DNA of 64,000 nucleotides from Rhodococcus sp. SBT000017 (lineage in GTDB: Bacteria > Actinomycetota > Actinomycetes > Mycobacteriales > Mycobacteriaceae), in assembly GCF_003688915.1 (NCBI RefSeq), contig NZ_REFU01000001.1, positions 3,968,001 through 4,032,000 of the forward strand, given 5' to 3'. The translations under genes and the position numbers were made by a program. The notes beneath the pieces were generated by a model. That model was given only the letters and a program-made list of their open reading frames with translations, ran no database searches and had not been told where the DNA came from. This document shows positions 42,749-50,016 of the stretch, in pieces (within the stretch, counting starts at the first letter, position 1; the number at the start of each line of letters is the position of its first letter).

Positions 42749-43207
42749 GTGCACATCACGGCCAAGGCGGACTATGCGGTTCGGACGCTCGTCGAACTCG
42801 CGGCGGTCGGTGGACAGCGGCCCGCGAAGGCAGAGGCGCTGGCCATGGCTCAGGGCATACCGCACAAGTTTCTCGAATCGGTGCTCTCGGATCTGCGTCG
42901 CGCAGATCTGGTGTGCAGTAGGAGGGGGCCCGACGGCGGCTACTGGCTGGCGCGCGAGGCGTCGGACATTTCTGTTGCCGATGTGATGAGGGCCGTCGAG
43001 GGCCCGTTGGCGTCGGTGCGCGGTCAGCGGCCCGAGGATGCGGAGTACTTCGGTCCGGCCGAGCCGCTCACTCGGGTGTGGCTGGCGGTGCGTGTCAATC
43101 TGCGGGCGGTGCTCGAGGCGGTGTCGCTGGCGGACATCGTCGAGAACGATCTCCCGGACTTCGTCGGAGAGTTGATCAGCGAGCCGACCGCGTGGGCACG
43201 TCGATGA
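42749..43207 (+). CDS. Rrf2 family transcriptional regulator (no Fe-S cysteine cluster)
   Basis: 152 residues from GTG 42749. The winged helix is typical: ITAKADYAVRTLVELA, IPHKFLESVLSDLRRADLV, RRGPDGGYWLAR. Only one Cys is present, so the three-cysteine iron-sulfur site of IscR/NsrR is absent; sensing must be by another means. A palindrome abuts the start. Possible targets are the neighbouring SOUL and desaturase genes. Confidence 0.88.
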   Translation: MHITAKADYAVRTLVELAAVGGQRPAKAEALAMAQGIPHKFLESVLSDLRRADLVCSRRGPDGGYWLAREASDISVADVMRAVEGPLASVRGQRPEDAEYFGPAEPLTRVWLAVRVNLRAVLEAVSLADIVENDLPDFVGELISEPTAWARR

Positions 43208-43263: not shown

Positions 43264-43285
43264 AAACTTGCAGAACAGTGCAAGT
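43264..43285. promoter_or_regulatory. TetR operator candidate upstream of the efflux pair
   Basis: AACTTGCA (43264-43271), GAACAG, TGCAAGTT (43278-43285): perfect 8-bp arms, 17 bp before the TetR start. Expected to be the autorepression site controlling TetR and the MMPL gene together. Confidence 0.65.
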
Positions 43286-43302
43286 TCCGTAGGTTGGTAA
43301 GC

Positions 43303-43971
43303 GTGACTTCTCCGACGGGCCTTCGTGATCTGAAGAAGGCCGCCACCCGCGACGCCCTCGGCATGGCCGCCGTGCGTCTGGGCAAGGAGCACGGCTTCGA
43401 CGCGGTCACCGCCGACGCCATCGCGCACGAAGCGGGAGTCTCCACCCGCACGTTCCACAACTACTTCTCCAACAAGGAAGAAGCAGTACTTCACCACATC
43501 GAAGTGTCTGCACTCGAATGGTTCGAGCTCCTGCGCGCCAGGCCGTCGACCGAACCGATCTGGGACTCGTTGCGGCACATCGCAATCAACCTCGTCGCGG
43601 ACCCCGGCCGGGATCTGGACGACACCTTCGCGGCAGCGCGGCTGATCGAGGCCAACCCTGCCCTGATGGCGCGCAAGCTCGAAATGCACCAATCGCTGAC
43701 CCGCAAGCTCGGCGAGGCCATCGCCGAGCGAACCGGCACCGATATCGACACCGACCTCTACCCCAACCTGCTCCAGATGGCCGTCGGTGGTGCCGTCACC
43801 GCAGCACTGAACATCTGGGTCACCGACTCCGCCGGCGCATCGACACCGAGGGCCCTCATCGAGAACGCCTTCGATCAACTCCGAGCCGGGTTGCCCGAGC
43901 CCAAGGGTCGTTCCGCAGGCTCCACTCCCGAACCCAACACCCCCACGTCCGAACCCAACCGAGGAGCTTGA
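43303..43971 (+). CDS. TetR family regulator of the MMPL exporter
   Basis: About 222 residues from GTG 43303. HTH: GLRDLKKAATRDALGMAAVRLG, then EHGFDAVTADAIAHEAGVSTRTFHNYFSNKEEAV. An all-helical ligand domain follows, and a Pro/Ser/Thr-rich tail (about 195-222) is unusual. It is followed after 2 bp by the MMPL gene, so the two form an operon, and it has a palindrome directly upstream. The ligand is likely a lipid or drug exported by the partner. Confidence 0.9.
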   Translation: MTSPTGLRDLKKAATRDALGMAAVRLGKEHGFDAVTADAIAHEAGVSTRTFHNYFSNKEEAVLHHIEVSALEWFELLRARPSTEPIWDSLRHIAINLVADPGRDLDDTFAAARLIEANPALMARKLEMHQSLTRKLGEAIAERTGTDIDTDLYPNLLQMAVGGAVTAALNIWVTDSAGASTPRALIENAFDQLRAGLPEPKGRSAGSTPEPNTPTSEPNRGA

Positions 43972-43973
43972 CA

Positions 43974-46262
43974 GTGGCCACCTATCTCTACCGAATCGGA
44001 AGATTCGCGTACCGACGCAAGGGCATCGTCCTCGGACTGTGGCTGGCGATTCTGGTTCTCGCCGGAGTGGGCGCTGCGACGCTGTCCGGCCCCACCGCCA
44101 ACTCGTTCAACATCCCGGGCACACCGGCGCAGGCCGCACTCGACCTGCAGGAGGAGCGCTTCGGCAACGCCGAGGATCCGCTCACCGCAGTCAACGCCGA
44201 GTACGTGTTCCAGGCACCCGACGGGCAGACGCTGGACACCCCGCAGTACACCTCGGCCATCGATGCCACCATCGCCGAGATCGAGAAGGTGGACGCCGCG
44301 AAGCCCGCGGAAGGTGCTCCGCCGCTGGCGAATCCGGTCGCTGCGAATCAGTCGACCATCGAGCGATACACCGAGGCGGCAGCGGAGGCAGGTACCCCGG
44401 CCGACGAGGTTGCAGCCGACGCCGCAGCCACTTCACCGCTGAGCCCCGACGGCAACGTCGGAACGGTCACCGTGCCGATCAACGTCGAGCTCGCCGACGT
44501 CACCGACCAGATCCGAACCGAACTCGACGAGGCCGCACAGCCGGCCCGTGACGCCGGATTGACCGTCCTGCTCGGCGGAACCGTCGCGCAGGACACCGCC
44601 CCGCCCGGCGGAACGTCGGAACTCGTCGGTCTGGCCGTGGCCGCCGTCGTGCTGCTCATCATGTTCGGATCCGCCGCAGCCGCCAGCCTGCCGCTCATCA
44701 CCGCCATCGTCGGAATCGGCATCTCGAGCCTGGCGATCACCACCGCATCCGGCTTCGCCGACCTGTCGACGTTCACACCGGTGCTCGCCATCATGATCGG
44801 TCTGGCCGTCGCGATCGACTACTCCCTGTTCATTCTGGCTCGCTACAGACACGAGCTGACGCTCACCGACGACCGTGAGGAAGCCGTCGGCCGGTCGGTG
44901 GGAACGGCAGGCTCGGCCGTCGTGTTCGCCGGTGCCACCGTGCTCATCGCCCTCGTCGCACTGCGCGTCGTCGGCATTCCGTTCCTGTCGCAGATGGGTC
45001 TGGCAGCCGGATTCGCAGTGTTCATCGCGGTCCTCATCGCACTGACATTCCTTCCCGCCATGCTCGGCCTCTACAAGAACAAGGCCTTCGCGGGCAAGAT
45101 CAAGTTCGTCAACACTGCCGACCCGGAATCTCCCGATGCCAAGCCCACCAACGGACTTCGGTGGGCCAGGTTCCTGGTCAAGCGGCCCGCGGTGGGACTC
45201 ATCGGCGGCATCGTTCTGCTCGGCGTCATCGCAGGCCCGGCCACCGGACTGTCGCTGGCTCTGCCATCGATCGCCACGTCGGATCCGTCCACACCCGCGC
45301 GTCAGGCCTACGACATCGTCGACGAGGGCTTCGGACCGGGACGCAACGGACCTCTGCTCGTCATCGCCGACGCGTCGAACGTGGCCGAGGCCGATCGGAC
45401 GGCGTCGTTCGGCAAGGTCGTCGAGGCCGTCGTCGAGCAGTCGGACGTCACGAACGCGCAGATCATCGCCGTCAACCCGGCCGGTGACACCGCGCAGATT
45501 CTCGTCACGCCGTCGTCCTCGCCGAACAGTGAGCAGACGAAGGACTTGGTGGCGAACCTGCGGGACGCCGAACCGGGCGTGCAGGCCAGCGACGGCGTCT
45601 CCTACGGCGTCACCGGACAGACGGCGCTCGAGTTGGACGTCTCCGAACGACTGCAGGACGCGTTGATTCCGTACCTGGCAGTGGTCGTCGGCCTGGCCTT
45701 CGTGTTGCTGATGCTGGTGTTCCGCTCCATCCTGGTGCCGCTGACCGCAACGCTGGGCTTCCTGCTCAGCGTGCTCGCAACCTTCGGTGCCACGGTGTTC
45801 ATCTTCCAAGAGGGTGGGCTCGGCCTGATCTCCAATCCGCAGCCGATCGTCAGCTTCATGCCGATCTTCCTGATCGGTGTCGTGTTCGGCCTGGCGATGG
45901 ACTACCAGGTGTTCCTCGTCTCGCGAATGCGTGAGGAGTTCGTCCACGGAGCCGCCGCCAAGGATGCCGTCGTCAACGGCTTCAAGTACGGCGCACGCGT
46001 GGTCACCTCTGCAGCGATCATCATGATCTCGGTGTTCGCCGCGTTCATCGCCGAGCCGGACTCGTTCATCAAGTCCATCGGATTCGCGCTCGCCGCCGCC
46101 GTGTTCTTCGACGCGTTCGTCGTGCGCATGGTGCTGATTCCGTCCGTGATGGCGCTGCTCGGCGACAAGGCCTGGTGGCTGCCGAAGTGGCTGGACAAGG
46201 TTCTGCCGGATGTCGACATCGAAGGTGCCAAGCTGAAGACGGCACCGGAGAAGACCGCGTAA
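43974..46262 (+). CDS. MMPL/RND family transporter
   Basis: 762 residues from GTG 43974 with GAGGAG upstream. Duplicated layout: helix 1 (about 15-35), a large external loop, helices 2-6, then the same again. The proton-relay Asp-Tyr pairs lie in GLAVAIDYSLFILARYR and GVVFGLAMDYQVFLVSRMREE. MMPL proteins export lipids, siderophores or drugs with the proton gradient. It lacks the long C-terminal domain of the lipid-exporting MmpL3 type. Co-transcribed with the upstream TetR gene. Confidence 0.92.
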   Translation: MATYLYRIGRFAYRRKGIVLGLWLAILVLAGVGAATLSGPTANSFNIPGTPAQAALDLQEERFGNAEDPLTAVNAEYVFQAPDGQTLDTPQYTSAIDATIAEIEKVDAAKPAEGAPPLANPVAANQSTIERYTEAAAEAGTPADEVAADAAATSPLSPDGNVGTVTVPINVELADVTDQIRTELDEAAQPARDAGLTVLLGGTVAQDTAPPGGTSELVGLAVAAVVLLIMFGSAAAASLPLITAIVGIGISSLAITTASGFADLSTFTPVLAIMIGLAVAIDYSLFILARYRHELTLTDDREEAVGRSVGTAGSAVVFAGATVLIALVALRVVGIPFLSQMGLAAGFAVFIAVLIALTFLPAMLGLYKNKAFAGKIKFVNTADPESPDAKPTNGLRWARFLVKRPAVGLIGGIVLLGVIAGPATGLSLALPSIATSDPSTPARQAYDIVDEGFGPGRNGPLLVIADASNVAEADRTASFGKVVEAVVEQSDVTNAQIIAVNPAGDTAQILVTPSSSPNSEQTKDLVANLRDAEPGVQASDGVSYGVTGQTALELDVSERLQDALIPYLAVVVGLAFVLLMLVFRSILVPLTATLGFLLSVLATFGATVFIFQEGGLGLISNPQPIVSFMPIFLIGVVFGLAMDYQVFLVSRMREEFVHGAAAKDAVVNGFKYGARVVTSAAIIMISVFAAFIAEPDSFIKSIGFALAAAVFFDAFVVRMVLIPSVMALLGDKAWWLPKWLDKVLPDVDIEGAKLKTAPEKTA

Positions 46263-46281
46263 TTCTCGACTGCGGCCGGTC

Positions 46282-46351
46282 GGCCGAAGATTGCCCGCAA
46301 CACTCGAAAAACGGAGAGACTGTTATCCATGTGTACGAGTAATCTTCGGCC
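46282..46351 (+). promoter_or_regulatory. Long inverted repeat over an upstream ORF, before ABC exporter pair 2
   Basis: GGCCGAAGATT (46282-46292) pairs perfectly with AATCTTCGGCC (46341-46351), and ACTCG (46302-46306) with CGAGT (46336-46340), leaving a 9-nt bulge on the 5' side and a 29-nt loop. The 3' side covers codons 3-8 of the upstream ORF and ends 3 bases before the exporter's ATG. A translation-sensitive leader structure is the best reading; a DNA operator is the alternative. Confidence 0.6.
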
Positions 46352-46361
46352 ATCATGCTGA
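46329..46361 (+). CDS. Upstream ORF / leader peptide, 10 codons
   Basis: ATG at 46329 with GGAGAG 10 bases upstream reads MCTSNLRPSC and stops at 46361, overlapping the exporter's ATG (46355). The exporter start itself has no ribosome-binding site, so its translation probably depends on ribosomes that translate this ORF. Cys occurs at positions 2 and 10. The small size means it may be only a regulatory device. Confidence 0.5.
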   Translation: MCTSNLRPSC

Positions 46362-48085
46362 TCCCCCTGCTGCGCACGTATCTGGCTCCGTACAAGATGC
46401 CGATCGTCGCGCTGATTCTGCTCCAACTGGTGGCCACGCTGGCGGCACTGTTCCTGCCCAGCCTCAATGCCGACATCATCGACAAGGGCGTCACCACCGG
46501 CGACACGGGCTACATCCTCTCGGCCGGCGGAGTGATGCTGATGGTCTCGGCGGTGCAGATCATCAGCTCGGTGGCCGCGGTGTTCATCGGGGCTCGCACG
46601 GCCATGACTGTCGGACGTGACCTGCGCGGTTCGATCCTGCACCGCGTCGGTACATTCTCGGCTCGAGAGGTCGGCCAGTTCGGTGCGCCGTCGCTGATCA
46701 CCCGCAACACCAATGACGTTCAGCAGGTGCAGTTGGTGATCGTCATGGGGTTCACCATCGTGGTGATGGCCCCGATCATGTGCGTCGGCGGCATCGTGAT
46801 GTCGCTGCGCGAGGACCTCGGGTTGTCCTGGATCCTGATGATCGCGGTGCCCGGGCTCGCGATCTCCATGGGCCTGATCATCATCAAGATGGTGCCGGCG
46901 TTCCGCTCGATGCAGAAGCGTATCGACGCAGTCAATCGTGTGCTGCGTGAGCAGATCACCGGAATCCGCGTGGTACGAGCGTTCGTTCGCGAGGATTTCG
47001 AGATCGACCGGTTCGGAGCGGCCAACACCGCACTCACCGACACTGCTCTCCGCGTCGGACGGCTCATGGCCCTGATGTTCCCGACGGTCATGCTCATCAG
47101 CAACGTCACCAGTGTTGCCGTCATCTGGTTCGGCGGCCACGCGATCGATGACGGCACAATGCAGATCGGCTCTCTCACAGCACTTCTGAGCTACATCATG
47201 CTGATCCTCATGTCGGTGATGATGGCCTCGTTCATCGCGATGATGGTTCCCCGCGCGTCGGTGTGCGCCGATCGCATCAGCGAGGTACTCGCCACCGAAT
47301 CCTCGGTCGTGTTGCCCCGCGAGCCCAAGACGTTCGCGTCCTCGCCGGGAACCGTCGAGCTCGTGAACGCCGAATTCTCTTTCCCCGGAGCCGAATATCC
47401 GGTGCTGTGCGGGGTGAACCTCACCGCCGAGGCCGGCAAGGTCACCGCCATCATCGGCGGCACCGGCTCGGGAAAGTCCACTCTCGTCAACCTGATTCCG
47501 CGACTCATCGACGTCACCGGCGGTGAGGTGCGCATCGGCGGAGTCGACATCCGCGAACTCGATCTGGACCTGCTGCGCTCGGAGATCGGTCTGATCCCGC
47601 AGAAGCCGTACCTGTTCTCGGGCACCATCGCGAGCAACCTGCGCTACGGCAAATCCGACGCCACCGACGAAGAACTGTGGGAGGCACTCGAGATCGCCCA
47701 GGGAGCCGACTTCGTTCGCGCCATGCCCGAGGGATTGGAAACGCCCGTCGCCCAGGGCGGTACGACGGTCTCCGGCGGTCAGCGGCAACGCCTCGCCATC
47801 GCCCGCGCGTTGGTCCGCAAACCGAGCATCTATCTGTTCGACGACTCGTTCTCCGCACTGGACCTCACCACCGACGCCAATCTGCGCGCGGCTCTGAAGG
47901 CAGTGACGCGAGATGCATGCATGATCGTTGTCGCTCAACGCGTCTCGACCATCATAGACGCCGATCAGATACTCGTACTAGACGACGGAAAGCCGGTAGG
48001 TGTGGGTACCCACGACCAATTGATGGCCGATTGCCCCACCTACGCCGAGATCGTCGACTCGCAGCACGCCGTGGGTGCACTGTGA
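46355..48085 (+). CDS. ABC exporter half-transporter, first subunit of pair 2 (Rv1273c-like)
   Basis: 576 residues. Six helices (about 15-310), beginning MLIPLLRTYLAPYKMPIVAL, then ATPase: Walker A IIGGTGSGKSTLVNL, Q-loop LIPQKPYLFSG, signature TVSGGQRQRLAIARA, Walker B IYLFDDSFSALD, and a Q in place of the H-loop His (VVAQRVST). Asp replaces the catalytic Glu and the H-loop is lost, so this is the non-hydrolysing half of a heterodimer. The layout and N-terminus resemble mycobacterial Rv1273c. It overlaps the partner gene by GTGA. Confidence 0.92.
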   Translation: MLIPLLRTYLAPYKMPIVALILLQLVATLAALFLPSLNADIIDKGVTTGDTGYILSAGGVMLMVSAVQIISSVAAVFIGARTAMTVGRDLRGSILHRVGTFSAREVGQFGAPSLITRNTNDVQQVQLVIVMGFTIVVMAPIMCVGGIVMSLREDLGLSWILMIAVPGLAISMGLIIIKMVPAFRSMQKRIDAVNRVLREQITGIRVVRAFVREDFEIDRFGAANTALTDTALRVGRLMALMFPTVMLISNVTSVAVIWFGGHAIDDGTMQIGSLTALLSYIMLILMSVMMASFIAMMVPRASVCADRISEVLATESSVVLPREPKTFASSPGTVELVNAEFSFPGAEYPVLCGVNLTAEAGKVTAIIGGTGSGKSTLVNLIPRLIDVTGGEVRIGGVDIRELDLDLLRSEIGLIPQKPYLFSGTIASNLRYGKSDATDEELWEALEIAQGADFVRAMPEGLETPVAQGGTTVSGGQRQRLAIARALVRKPSIYLFDDSFSALDLTTDANLRAALKAVTRDACMIVVAQRVSTIIDADQILVLDDGKPVGVGTHDQLMADCPTYAEIVDSQHAVGAL

Positions 48086-50016
48086 CCGCGCAGGTGGAGA
48101 AGACGGAAGAGGAGGACACCGCCCCCGTCGCCAAAACTGTGAAGCCGGGAACCAAGGCCCGCGACTTCAAGGGCTCGTTCAAGCGACTGATCGGCCTGCT
48201 CGCTCCCGAGCGAGTGTTCCTGACGATCATGCTGGCGTTCGGTATCGCCAGCACCGTGCTGACCGTCGCCGCGCCCAGCGTCCTCGGACACGCCACGGAC
48301 CTCATTTTCAACGGTGTCGTCGGCCGCGAGCTCGATCCGGGTCTGACCAGAGAACAGGCCATCGACCAGCTGCGGGCGGAGGGGAACGACTCCGTCGCAG
48401 ATCTGGTGTCCGGGACGGACCTGACTCCAGGAGCCGGAATCGACTTCGGCGCAGTGGGAACCGTGCTGATGTGGGTACTGGTTCTGTATGTGCTGTCTGC
48501 GGTGCTGGCCTGGGCGCAGGGATACATCCTCAACATCGCGCTGCAGCGTCGAATCCTGTTGCTGCGCGGCAGCGTCGAAGCGAAGGTGCATCGATTGCCG
48601 CTGAAGTACTTCGACAACAATGCTCGCGGCGAGACGCTGAGCCGCGTCACCAACGACATCGACAACGTCTCGACCAGCCTGCAGCAGACGCTGAGTCAGT
48701 TGATCACCGGCATTCTCACCGTCCTGGGCATCCTCGGCGTCATGATCTGGATCTCGCCGCTGCTGGCTCTCGTTGCGGTGCTGACCATTCCGGCGTCGTT
48801 CGCGGTCACCGCCGTCATCGCCAAGCGTTCGCAGCCGCACTTCGTCGCGCAGTGGAAGCACACCGGCAAGCTGAACGCGCAGATCGAAGAGACGTACACG
48901 GGCCACGAGATCGTCAAGGCCTTCGGTCGTCAGGCGGACGTGGAACGCGAATTCGGCGATCGCAACGAGAAGCTGTTCCAGTCGAGCTTCCGGGCGCAGT
49001 TCATCTCCGGCATGATCATGCCCGTCATCATGTTCCTCGGGAACATCAACTACGTGGTCATCGCCGTGGTCGGCGGGCTGCGGGTCGCGTCGGGCACACT
49101 CACGCTCGGTGAGGTGCAGGCGTTCATCCAGTACTCGCGTCAGTTCACGCAACCGCTCACCCAGGTGGGTGCGATGGTGAACCTGGTCCAGTCGGGTGTC
49201 GCGTCGGCCGAGCGTATCTTCGAGGTCCTCGACGCCGAGGAAGAAGACGCCGACCCCGCCGATGCGGTACGGCCCACCGAGCGCCGAGGACGCGTCGAAT
49301 TCGACAACGTCTCGTTCGGCTACTCTCCCGACCGCCCGCTCATCGAGAACCTCTCGCTGGTGGCCGATCCCGGGCATCTGGTCGCGATCGTCGGACCGAC
49401 CGGCGCGGGCAAGACCACCCTGGTGAACCTCATCATGCGGTTCTACGAGATCGATTCCGGCCGAATCACCCTCGACGGCGTCGACACCAGGAAGATGACC
49501 CGCGAGGAACTTCGGGCTCGCACCGGAATGGTGCTGCAGGACACCTGGCTGTTCGGCGGAACCATTCGCGACAACATCGCTTACGGAGACCCGAGTGCCA
49601 GCGAGGAGGAAATCCTCGAGGCCGCGCGAGTGAGCTACGTCGATCGCTTCGTCCACTCGTTGCCCGACGGCTACGACACGATCATCGACGAGGAGGGCAA
49701 CAACGTCAGCGCCGGTGAGAAGCAGCTCATCACCATCGCCCGTGCCTTCCTGGCCAAGCCGCTGATTCTCATCCTCGACGAGGCCACCAGCTCGGTCGAC
49801 ACCCGTACCGAACTGCTGGTGCAGAAGGCCACCGCGAAGCTGCGCACCGATCGCACCAGTTTCGTGATCGCGCACAGGCTTTCGACCATCCGCGACGCGG
49901 ACACCATCGTGGTGATGGAGAACGGCAGCATCGTCGAGCAGGGTAATCACGAGGAACTGCTCGCGGCCAAGGGTGCCTACTTCCGCCTCAATGCGGCTGG
50001 CGCCGCAGTGGCATGA
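48082..50016 (+). CDS. ABC exporter half-transporter, second subunit of pair 2 (Rv1272c-like)
   Basis: 644 residues from GTG 48082 overlapping the first subunit stop. An extended cytoplasmic N-terminus (about 1-45) precedes six helices with a large extracellular insertion between helices 1 and 2 (GVVGRELDPGLTREQAIDQL onward). The ATPase has Walker A IVGPTGAGKTTLVNL, Q-loop MVLQDTWLFGG, signature NVSAGEKQLITIARA, Walker B ILILDEATSSVD and H-loop IAHRLST, with the catalytic Glu present. Substrate unknown; the mycobacterial relatives are linked to lipid export. Confidence 0.92.
   Translation: MTAQVEKTEEEDTAPVAKTVKPGTKARDFKGSFKRLIGLLAPERVFLTIMLAFGIASTVLTVAAPSVLGHATDLIFNGVVGRELDPGLTREQAIDQLRAEGNDSVADLVSGTDLTPGAGIDFGAVGTVLMWVLVLYVLSAVLAWAQGYILNIALQRRILLLRGSVEAKVHRLPLKYFDNNARGETLSRVTNDIDNVSTSLQQTLSQLITGILTVLGILGVMIWISPLLALVAVLTIPASFAVTAVIAKRSQPHFVAQWKHTGKLNAQIEETYTGHEIVKAFGRQADVEREFGDRNEKLFQSSFRAQFISGMIMPVIMFLGNINYVVIAVVGGLRVASGTLTLGEVQAFIQYSRQFTQPLTQVGAMVNLVQSGVASAERIFEVLDAEEEDADPADAVRPTERRGRVEFDNVSFGYSPDRPLIENLSLVADPGHLVAIVGPTGAGKTTLVNLIMRFYEIDSGRITLDGVDTRKMTREELRARTGMVLQDTWLFGGTIRDNIAYGDPSASEEEILEAARVSYVDRFVHSLPDGYDTIIDEEGNNVSAGEKQLITIARAFLAKPLILILDEATSSVDTRTELLVQKATAKLRTDRTSFVIAHRLSTIRDADTIVVMENGSIVEQGNHEELLAAKGAYFRLNAAGAAVA

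What the first reader, a model, noticed from the sequence alone, without database searches (positions are those of the whole stretch)
46282..46361. Possible ribosome-controlled leader: upstream ORF inside a long inverted repeat before a heterodimeric ABC exporter
A 10-codon ORF (MCTSNLRPSC, 46329-46361) with its own GGAGAG site overlaps the exporter ATG at 46355, which has none. The ORF's codons 3-8 form the 3' side of a long stem (46282-46292/46341-46351 plus 46302-46306/46336-46340). Ribosome progress on the ORF would open the stem and deliver ribosomes to the exporter. B. subtilis bmrCD, also a heterodimeric ABC exporter, is known to be controlled by a leader-peptide attenuator, so stalling-based induction is plausible. 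I know of no described case in this lineage.
Basis: partly seen in the sequence, partly recalled or inferred. Interest (0 to 1): 0.75.

Follow-up and report, generated by a model that had tools for sequence, protein, structure and literature searches.

The report
Hairpin, mini-gene and promoter before exporter
In one group of Rhodococcus-like bacteria, a short stretch before an export-pump gene has been kept almost unchanged because it appears to combine an RNA hairpin, a ten-codon mini-gene that feeds ribosomes to the pump, and the pump's own start-of-transcription signal; the idea that it senses antibiotics is not supported.

Summary
The 11-bp stem (46282-46292/46341-46351), GGAGAG site, 10-codon ORF (46329-46361) and its overlap with an exporter ATG lacking a ribosome site are all there. 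The element is strongly conserved in 30 of 37 genomes of the genus (one seen only in part). It was not found in the 7 sister genomes; outgroup loci gave only weak, doubtful matches. ATG is kept in 29 of 30 (GTG in one), GGAG in 30 of 30.

The 3' arm is also the exporter's likely ancestral promoter: TANNNT nine bases before the start in 29 of 30, and far above chance in outgroups. So some mRNA probably starts near 46352, without ORF or stem. Stalling-based induction is not supported: no terminator, no second ribosome site, and a stalled ribosome would crowd the exporter start.

Best reading: on mRNA running in from the MMPL gene, the stem hides the exporter start; translating the ORF opens it and hands ribosomes on by termination-reinitiation; a near-leaderless mRNA bypasses this. 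Separately, 27 outgroup orthologues carry unrelated, predicted leaderless mini-ORFs ending at the same overlap.

A new variant of a known kind, inferred from sequence alone.

The parts
43294..43971 (+). TetR-family regulator gene, first gene of the probable operon; start codon uncertain
   Evidence: ORF list; NCBIfam match to MftR-type TetR, 90 bits, below its cut-off of 225
43974..46262 (+). MMPL/RND-type transporter gene; its mRNA would run into the leader
   Evidence: queried from 43968; a match to this protein ends 28-125 nt before the exporter start in 36 of 37 genus loci; the 37th, L104, has only 56 nt of upstream sequence
46282..46292 (+). 5' arm of main stem, GGCCGAAGATT
   Evidence: recognisable in 29 of 30 clade members, the 30th (L104) being too short to tell; one base shorter in L103; 0.91 changes per site
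46293..46306 (+). fast-changing segment that still extends the stem in shifting registers
46313..46318 (+). GGAGAG, candidate Shine-Dalgarno site of the upstream ORF
   Evidence: GGAG in 30 of 30 though in two registers (read by eye from the alignment)
46316..46323 (+). near-invariant GAGACTGT: part of the ribosome site and/or the -35 region (18-base spacer to the -10 in the window)
   Evidence: 0.12 changes per site
46329..46361 (+). 10-codon upstream ORF MCTSNLRPSC, stop overlapping the exporter start (ATGCTGA)
   Evidence: ATG 29 of 30, GTG 1 of 30
46340..46345 (+). TAATCT, predicted -10 element of the exporter's own near-leaderless promoter
   Evidence: TANNNT nine bases before the start in 29 of 30 clade and 37 of 149 outgroup loci
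46341..46351 (+). 3' arm of main stem, AATCTTCGGCC
46352..46352 (+). predicted transcription start of the near-leaderless exporter mRNA (A in 22, G in 8 of 30)
   Evidence: inference from usual -10 spacing (recalled); base counts
46355..48085 (+). ABC exporter subunit 1 (Rv1273c-type; Walker B ends in DD)
   Evidence: best solved relative 8wcw chain A, E 2.8e-205
48082..50016 (+). ABC exporter subunit 2, GTGA overlap with subunit 1
   Evidence: 8wcw chain B, E 1.2e-244

Best explanation
A clade-specific cis-regulatory element with two mRNA classes. (1) On mRNA that runs in from the TetR-MMPL genes, the 5' arm pairs with the bases just before the exporter AUG. That AUG has no ribosome site, so it is masked. 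Ribosomes load on the 10-codon ORF, whose GGAG lies in the apical part, open the stem as they translate, terminate at UGA overlapping AUG and reinitiate on the exporter. (2) The 3' arm is also the ancestral -10 region of the exporter; mRNA starting near 46352 has neither ORF nor 5' arm and is read directly. Shown by comparison: conservation, pairing, clade limits, promoter motif. Inferred: transcription of the leader, translation of the ORF, reinitiation, activity of the promoter, any regulation.
For: Conserved blocks at 0.12-0.91 changes per site against 5.77 at 210 fourfold sites. Stem: 86.3% of cells paired against 33-42% when slid; covariation score reached by 3 of 500 shuffles, cells paired by 6 of 500; one pair A-U to G-C in five genomes and G-U in a sixth. 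Single-side changes in the main stem give G-U ten times and A-C twice, as expected for plus-strand RNA (my tally; binomial p 0.019). Start-proximal bases at least 80% paired with fold z below -2 in 28 of 29 clade members, 0 of 7 sisters, 1 of 149 outgroup loci. A and T of the ORF's ATG are unpaired in the window's predicted fold, yet show 1 and 0 changes, and that change gives GTG. Promoter: TANNNT 7-10 bases before the start in 54 of 149 outgroup loci against a shuffled mean of 3.5, maximum 9, over 200 shuffles. No terminator-like hairpin in the last 120 bases before the exporter in 37 of 37 genus loci by my scan (L104: 56 bases), while 10 of 13 outgroup loci with MMPL upstream have one. 27 of 31 predicted leaderless mini-ORFs upstream of outgroup exporters end at the same overlap.
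Against: No expression data. Two of the five covariation measures are not above shuffles: pairs changed on both sides (350 of 500 shuffles as high) and further pair types (235 of 500). The G-U bias weakens to p 0.083 with a prior of 0.6, and to about 0.055 (8 to 2, worked by hand) if the two neighbouring changes in L107 and the shared one in L082 and L094 each count once. The inner helix is about as stable on the minus strand (mean z -1.48 against -1.31), so it does not prove plus-strand RNA. Four single-genome changes break main-stem pairs and L103 lacks one base of the arm. GAGACTGT is more conserved than a ribosome site needs and sits where a -35 element would. In the window's fold two G of GGAGAG are paired in a small apical hairpin. 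GGAG to ATG spacing (9-12 bases) is long. The hairpin arose once, so 30 genomes are one origin. Peptide residues are mostly fixed by the stem or the exporter start.
Confidence: 0.45

Rival explanations
1. Promoter and operator only. The conserved blocks are the -35/-10 of a near-leaderless exporter promoter plus a DNA inverted repeat bound by a regulator; the ORF and RNA hairpin are by-products.
For: TANNNT position; GAGACTGT 17-18 bases upstream of it; main-stem palindrome is DNA-symmetric; inner helix about equally stable on both strands.
Against: Inter-arm spacing varies 45-49 bases, though this alone is not decisive; inner complementarity shifts register with bulges; G-U changes outnumber A-C ten to two (p 0.019-0.083); no second strong copy of the element in 37 genomes; conserved, unpaired A and T of the ORF start codon.
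Confidence: 0.28
2. Static translational coupling. The ORF and stem only set a fixed exporter output on the polycistronic mRNA; the promoter-like hexamer is inactive and nothing is regulated.
For: Stop/start overlap in 30 of 30; coupled mini-ORFs recur in outgroups; coupled small ORFs are over-represented in mycobacteria (PMC4633059, passages read).
Against: A conserved stem over the start is not needed for plain coupling; -10 kept in 29 of 30.
Confidence: 0.15
3. Ribosome-stalling attenuator induced by antibiotics or amino-acid shortage.
For: An ORF inside a stem before a multidrug-type heterodimeric exporter.
Against: No terminator; no exporter ribosome site to expose; a stalled ribosome would cover or crowd the exporter start; no sign of selection on the peptide apart from the start codon, and Cys2 is His in one genome.
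Confidence: 0.06
4. Processing or stability hairpin separating MMPL and exporter mRNA levels.
For: Position between two genes; no terminator-like hairpin in the genus.
Against: Does not explain the conserved ORF start, the GGAG motif or the close abutment of the stem to the start codon.
Confidence: 0.06

Closest known systems
uPPE2-ppe2 of Mycobacterium tuberculosis (PMC11260477; abstract and passages read)
   Same: Short out-of-frame upstream ORF with a ribosome site, downstream gene without one, overlapping stop and start, structured leader; expression shown there to depend on the upstream ORF, mainly by termination-reinitiation
   Different: There a B12 riboswitch controls the ORF and the overlap is AUGA; here no aptamer is known, the overlap is AUGCUGA, and the stem 3' arm doubles as a likely promoter
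Coupled small ORFs on leaderless mycobacterial mRNAs (PMC4633059; passages read)
   Same: Mini-ORFs ending at the next gene's start; in the example shown there the peptide sequence is not conserved; -10 just upstream
   Different: There RTGA overlap and leaderless start; the window's ORF is not leaderless and lies in a hairpin. The 27 outgroup mini-ORFs resemble this class but overlap by seven bases
bmrB-bmrCD of Bacillus subtilis (PMC4191407; abstract and passages read)
   Same: Leader ORF with stems before a heterodimeric ABC exporter
   Different: bmrB carries a predicted terminator and antiterminator and bmrCD responds to ribosome-targeting antibiotics; no terminator is seen here, and the response is untested
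MsRv1273c/72c exporter (PMC12038006; passages read)
   Same: Exporter proteins are close relatives: best solved match 8wcw, a code that occurs once in that paper (count only)
   Different: The passages I read do not deal with leader control

Membership tests
Termination-reinitiation coupled uORF (uPPE2-like) | uORF stop overlaps downstream start | tested here: met
   ATGCTGA in 30 of 30
Termination-reinitiation coupled uORF (uPPE2-like) | downstream gene lacks its own ribosome site, uORF has one | tested here: met
   alignment read by eye: no GGAG-like motif in the 20 bases before the exporter ATG; GGAG before the uORF in 30 of 30, with long spacing
Termination-reinitiation coupled uORF (uPPE2-like) | uORF translated and needed for downstream expression | not testable with these tools
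   needs ribosome profiling or reporters
Ribosome-mediated transcription attenuator (bmrB) | intrinsic terminator with competing antiterminator | tested here: not met
   0 terminator-like sites in 46150-46500; none in the last 120 bases of 37 genus loci by my scan
Ribosome-mediated transcription attenuator (bmrB) | induction by ribosome-targeting antibiotics | not testable with these tools
   no expression data
Translational attenuator (ermC type, recalled) | stalled ribosome frees a downstream ribosome site | tested here: not met
   no such site before the exporter; its start lies within reach of a ribosome on the ORF (geometry, footprint recalled)
Near-leaderless actinobacterial promoter | -10 TANNNT (consensus recalled) just upstream of the start codon | tested here: met
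   29 of 30; outgroups above shuffles
Near-leaderless actinobacterial promoter | mapped transcription start | not testable with these tools
   no mapped start for this clade in the listings or passages that I saw
Known Rfam RNA family | score above gathering threshold | tested here: not met
   six matches, none reaching its gathering score
DNA operator of a regulon | further copies of the whole element in the genome | tested here: not met
   model R1: one strong site in 29 of 37 genomes (82-104 bits); other listed hits are the same site on the opposite strand or two weak ones at 27.3 bits. Single arms were not searched for

The most novel reading that the evidence does not exclude
The hairpin is an origin filter for mRNA: the same 20 bases act as promoter in DNA and as lock in read-through RNA, so the exporter is read freely from its own promoter's mRNA but only through a mini-ORF when the mRNA comes from the TetR-MMPL operon. 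It appeared in a lineage that has no terminator between the two units, where 10 of 13 outgroup loci with the same neighbour have one.
Probability: 0.3. Interest if true: 0.7.

Novelty: new variant of a known kind. Interest (0 to 1): 0.5.

Why it matters
If right, it shows how a bacterium can keep two transport units adjacent without a terminator: one short sequence is promoter, RNA lock and mini-gene at once. It also suggests that mini-ORFs ending at the exporter start have arisen more than once ahead of this exporter type, giving a natural series for studying ribosome hand-over at a seven-base overlap. It would correct a tempting but unsupported reading as an antibiotic sensor.

Tried and rejected
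Tried: Rfam (nothing at gathering score). Sigma-70 and terminator scans (neither found by those consensus rules). BLAST of the leader in 401 family genomes: 25 strong matches (E below 1e-10), all in the genus; it missed five clade members known, so it is not very sensitive; the other listed matches (E about 0.0005 to 1; the list is cut) look like chance, some touching exporter starts. Covariance model over 154 outgroup and 7 sister loci: 16 weak hits (14.6-27.4 bits against 82-104 in the clade), none in the sisters; 7 of the 16 lie at the exporter start in sense (L008, L016, L167, L179, L182, L191, L196), the best being L167, 27.4 bits, E 0.0021. I read these as the shared promoter sequence with at most a short local stem, not as the same hairpin, but homology is not excluded. 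Strand test on the variable segment: not decisive. Coding test of the ORF by codon position: changes at third and other positions are about equal by eye, so no coding signal beyond the start codon. Papers: searches gave nothing on this leader in the listings. Rejected as less likely: DNA operator (kept as a rival), bmrB-type attenuator, ermC-type attenuator.

Rows dropped: L104 has only 56 bases upstream and was left out of the alignment (29 of 30 used) and. Of 154 outgroup loci 5 with identical upstream sequence were dropped (149); one search used 144 of 149 and one search used 140, where the start codon could be placed. Loci are related by descent, so counts are not independent; named and unnamed loci may include the same species. 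Shuffles kept base make-up only.

Full report
WHAT IS THERE. The window comes from a genome of the Rhodococcoides (Rhodococcus fascians) group, judged from 83-91% identical exporter genes in named records. The gene order is Rrf2-type regulator (42749-43207), TetR-type regulator (43294-43971), MMPL-type transporter (43974-46262), leader, two ABC exporter subunits (46355-48085 and 48082-50016). Both exporter subunits match entry 8wcw best among solved structures, a code that occurs in the paper on M. smegmatis MsRv1273c/72c; subunit 1 ends its Walker B motif in DD where subunit 2 has DE, read, as expected for a degenerate site. Only 1 of 200 shuffles folds as well as the leader.

CONSERVATION. 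All 37 genomes of the genus that were searched have the exporter. In 30 the leader is kept, one of them (L104) seen only from base -56 on; 7 lack it. On a tree of the exporter gene the 30 form one clade, support 1.0. Inferred changes per site: 7.29 in 46265-46281, 0.91 in the 5' arm, 4.64 in 46293-46306, 0.12 in 46316-46323, 2.6 in 46324-46328, 0.33 in the ORF's start codon, 0.55 in 46335-46354, against 5.77 at 210 fourfold sites of the exporter. This is strong purifying selection on discrete blocks, not general closeness of the genomes.

RNA PAIRING. In 29 aligned leaders (25 distinct rows) the named structure keeps 86.3% of cells paired against 33-42% when slid by one to three columns; the covariation score 0.106 is reached by 3 of 500 shuffles, cells paired by 6 of 500, but the number of pairs changed on both sides (1) and of further pair types (13) are reached by 350 and 235 of 500. 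One pair (46290/46343) changes from A-U to G-C in five related genomes and is G-U in a sixth. Tallying single-side changes in the 11-bp stem, ten give G-U and two give A-C; two more break pairs in other ways. DNA symmetry predicts equal numbers: p 0.019, or 0.083 with a less favourable prior, or about 0.055 if changes that may be one event are counted once (8 to 2, by hand). The inner helix changes register between species, yet the variable segment adds stability over its own shuffles (mean z -1.48 in 14 representatives); the minus strand gives -1.31, so this shows pairing but not strand. Start-proximal pairing with z below -2 occurs in 28 of 29 clade members, 0 of 7 sisters and 1 of 149 outgroup loci.

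THE ORF. ATG is kept in 29 of 30 and is GTG in the other; GGAG is kept in 30 of 30, in two registers. A46329 and T46330 are unpaired in the window's fold and next to a changing stretch, but show one and no changes. Beyond that the peptide is constrained by the stem and the exporter start, and I see no separate coding signal. Cys2 is His in one genome.

THE PROMOTER. Outgroup orthologues often show GGTAACCTTCG-like sequence directly before the start. TANNNT lies 7-10 bases before the start in 54 of 149 distinct outgroup loci (37 at nine bases), against a shuffled mean of 3.5 and maximum of 9; in the clade it lies at nine bases in 29 of 30, in the sister group in 1 of 7. In the window this is TAATCT 46340-46345 inside the 3' arm. 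T46340, a third codon position that is bulged in the predicted fold of part of the clade, is invariant in 30 of 30, which fits a -10 element. The same region therefore carries a likely promoter whose mRNA would lack the ORF.

CONTEXT. Of 94 outgroup loci given to (some with little flank), 18 have an Rrf2-type gene like that of the window directly upstream of the exporter, and 13 have an MMPL gene there; 10 of these 13 (two named Rhodococcus among the 13, the rest unnamed) have an intrinsic-terminator-like hairpin in between, the genus loci none in their last 120 bases (37 of 37). Read-through is therefore likely in the window's genus, though not shown.

RECURRING MINI-ORFS. Of 144 outgroup loci, 31 have no TANNNT 5-12 bases before the exporter but do have an ATG or GTG 5-9 bases after a TANNNT further upstream; in 27 of the 31 this mini-ORF (4-16 codons) is in the same frame as the window's and ends in the TGA that overlaps the exporter start; 3 are in the exporter's frame and 1 is in the third frame. 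The peptides differ. Coupled small ORFs were described for mycobacteria in general (PMC4633059, passages read) with a four-base overlap. This supports ribosome hand-over as a recurring feature of this exporter's start, but these mini-ORFs are predicted to be leaderless and are not shown to be homologous to the window's ORF.

MECHANISM. On read-through mRNA the stem covers the 11 bases before AUCAUG; with no ribosome site of its own the exporter would depend on ribosomes arriving from the ORF. The uPPE2-ppe2 case in M. tuberculosis shows that such a relay works (PMC11260477, abstract and passages). Stalling-based induction is unlikely: the exporter AUG is 26 bases from the ORF AUG, within reach of a stalled ribosome; no terminator is present, whereas bmrCD control works through one (PMC4191407, abstract and passages).

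VERDICT. Real, well conserved and, from its conservation, functional; most likely a coupled uORF in a hairpin with an embedded promoter. How it is regulated, if at all, is unknown. Searches of the held papers listed nothing on this leader by title or start of abstract; most subscription journals are not in that library.

Noticed in passing
outgroup loci L007, L022, L024, L026, L027, L029, L041, L046, L160, L168, L177, L180, L190, L194, L195, L197, L199, L200, L202, L207, L211, L212, L213, L215, L218, L222, L223: Predicted leaderless mini-ORFs of 4-16 codons ending at the seven-base overlap with the exporter start, with differing peptides.
   Followed up: partly
L111, L112, L113, L115 (sister genomes): Upstream ORFs in the same overlapping frame, starting near the MMPL stop; in L111-L113 they can be read from MTCTHH or MNCTHH.
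   Followed up: partly
window 43265-43286: Inverted repeat AACTTGCA-N6-TGCAAGTT before the TetR gene, a likely operator for its own operon (seen by eye).
   Followed up: no
L007, L154, L156, L157, L158, L161, L163, L165, L166, L170: Terminator-like hairpin between MMPL and exporter, not found in the window's genus.
   Followed up: partly
L008, L016, L167, L179, L182, L191, L196 upstream of the exporter: Weak hits of the hairpin model at the exporter start, and short inverted repeats around the -10 element such as GGCTACC/GGTAGCC in L008.
   Followed up: no
window 46316-46323: GAGACTGT is the most conserved block of the leader and is explained fully neither by a ribosome site nor by a standard -35 element.
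   Followed up: partly
L082 and L094 leaders: The two leaders share several changes although their exporter genes sit apart on the tree, which suggests exchange of the leader by recombination.
   Followed up: no
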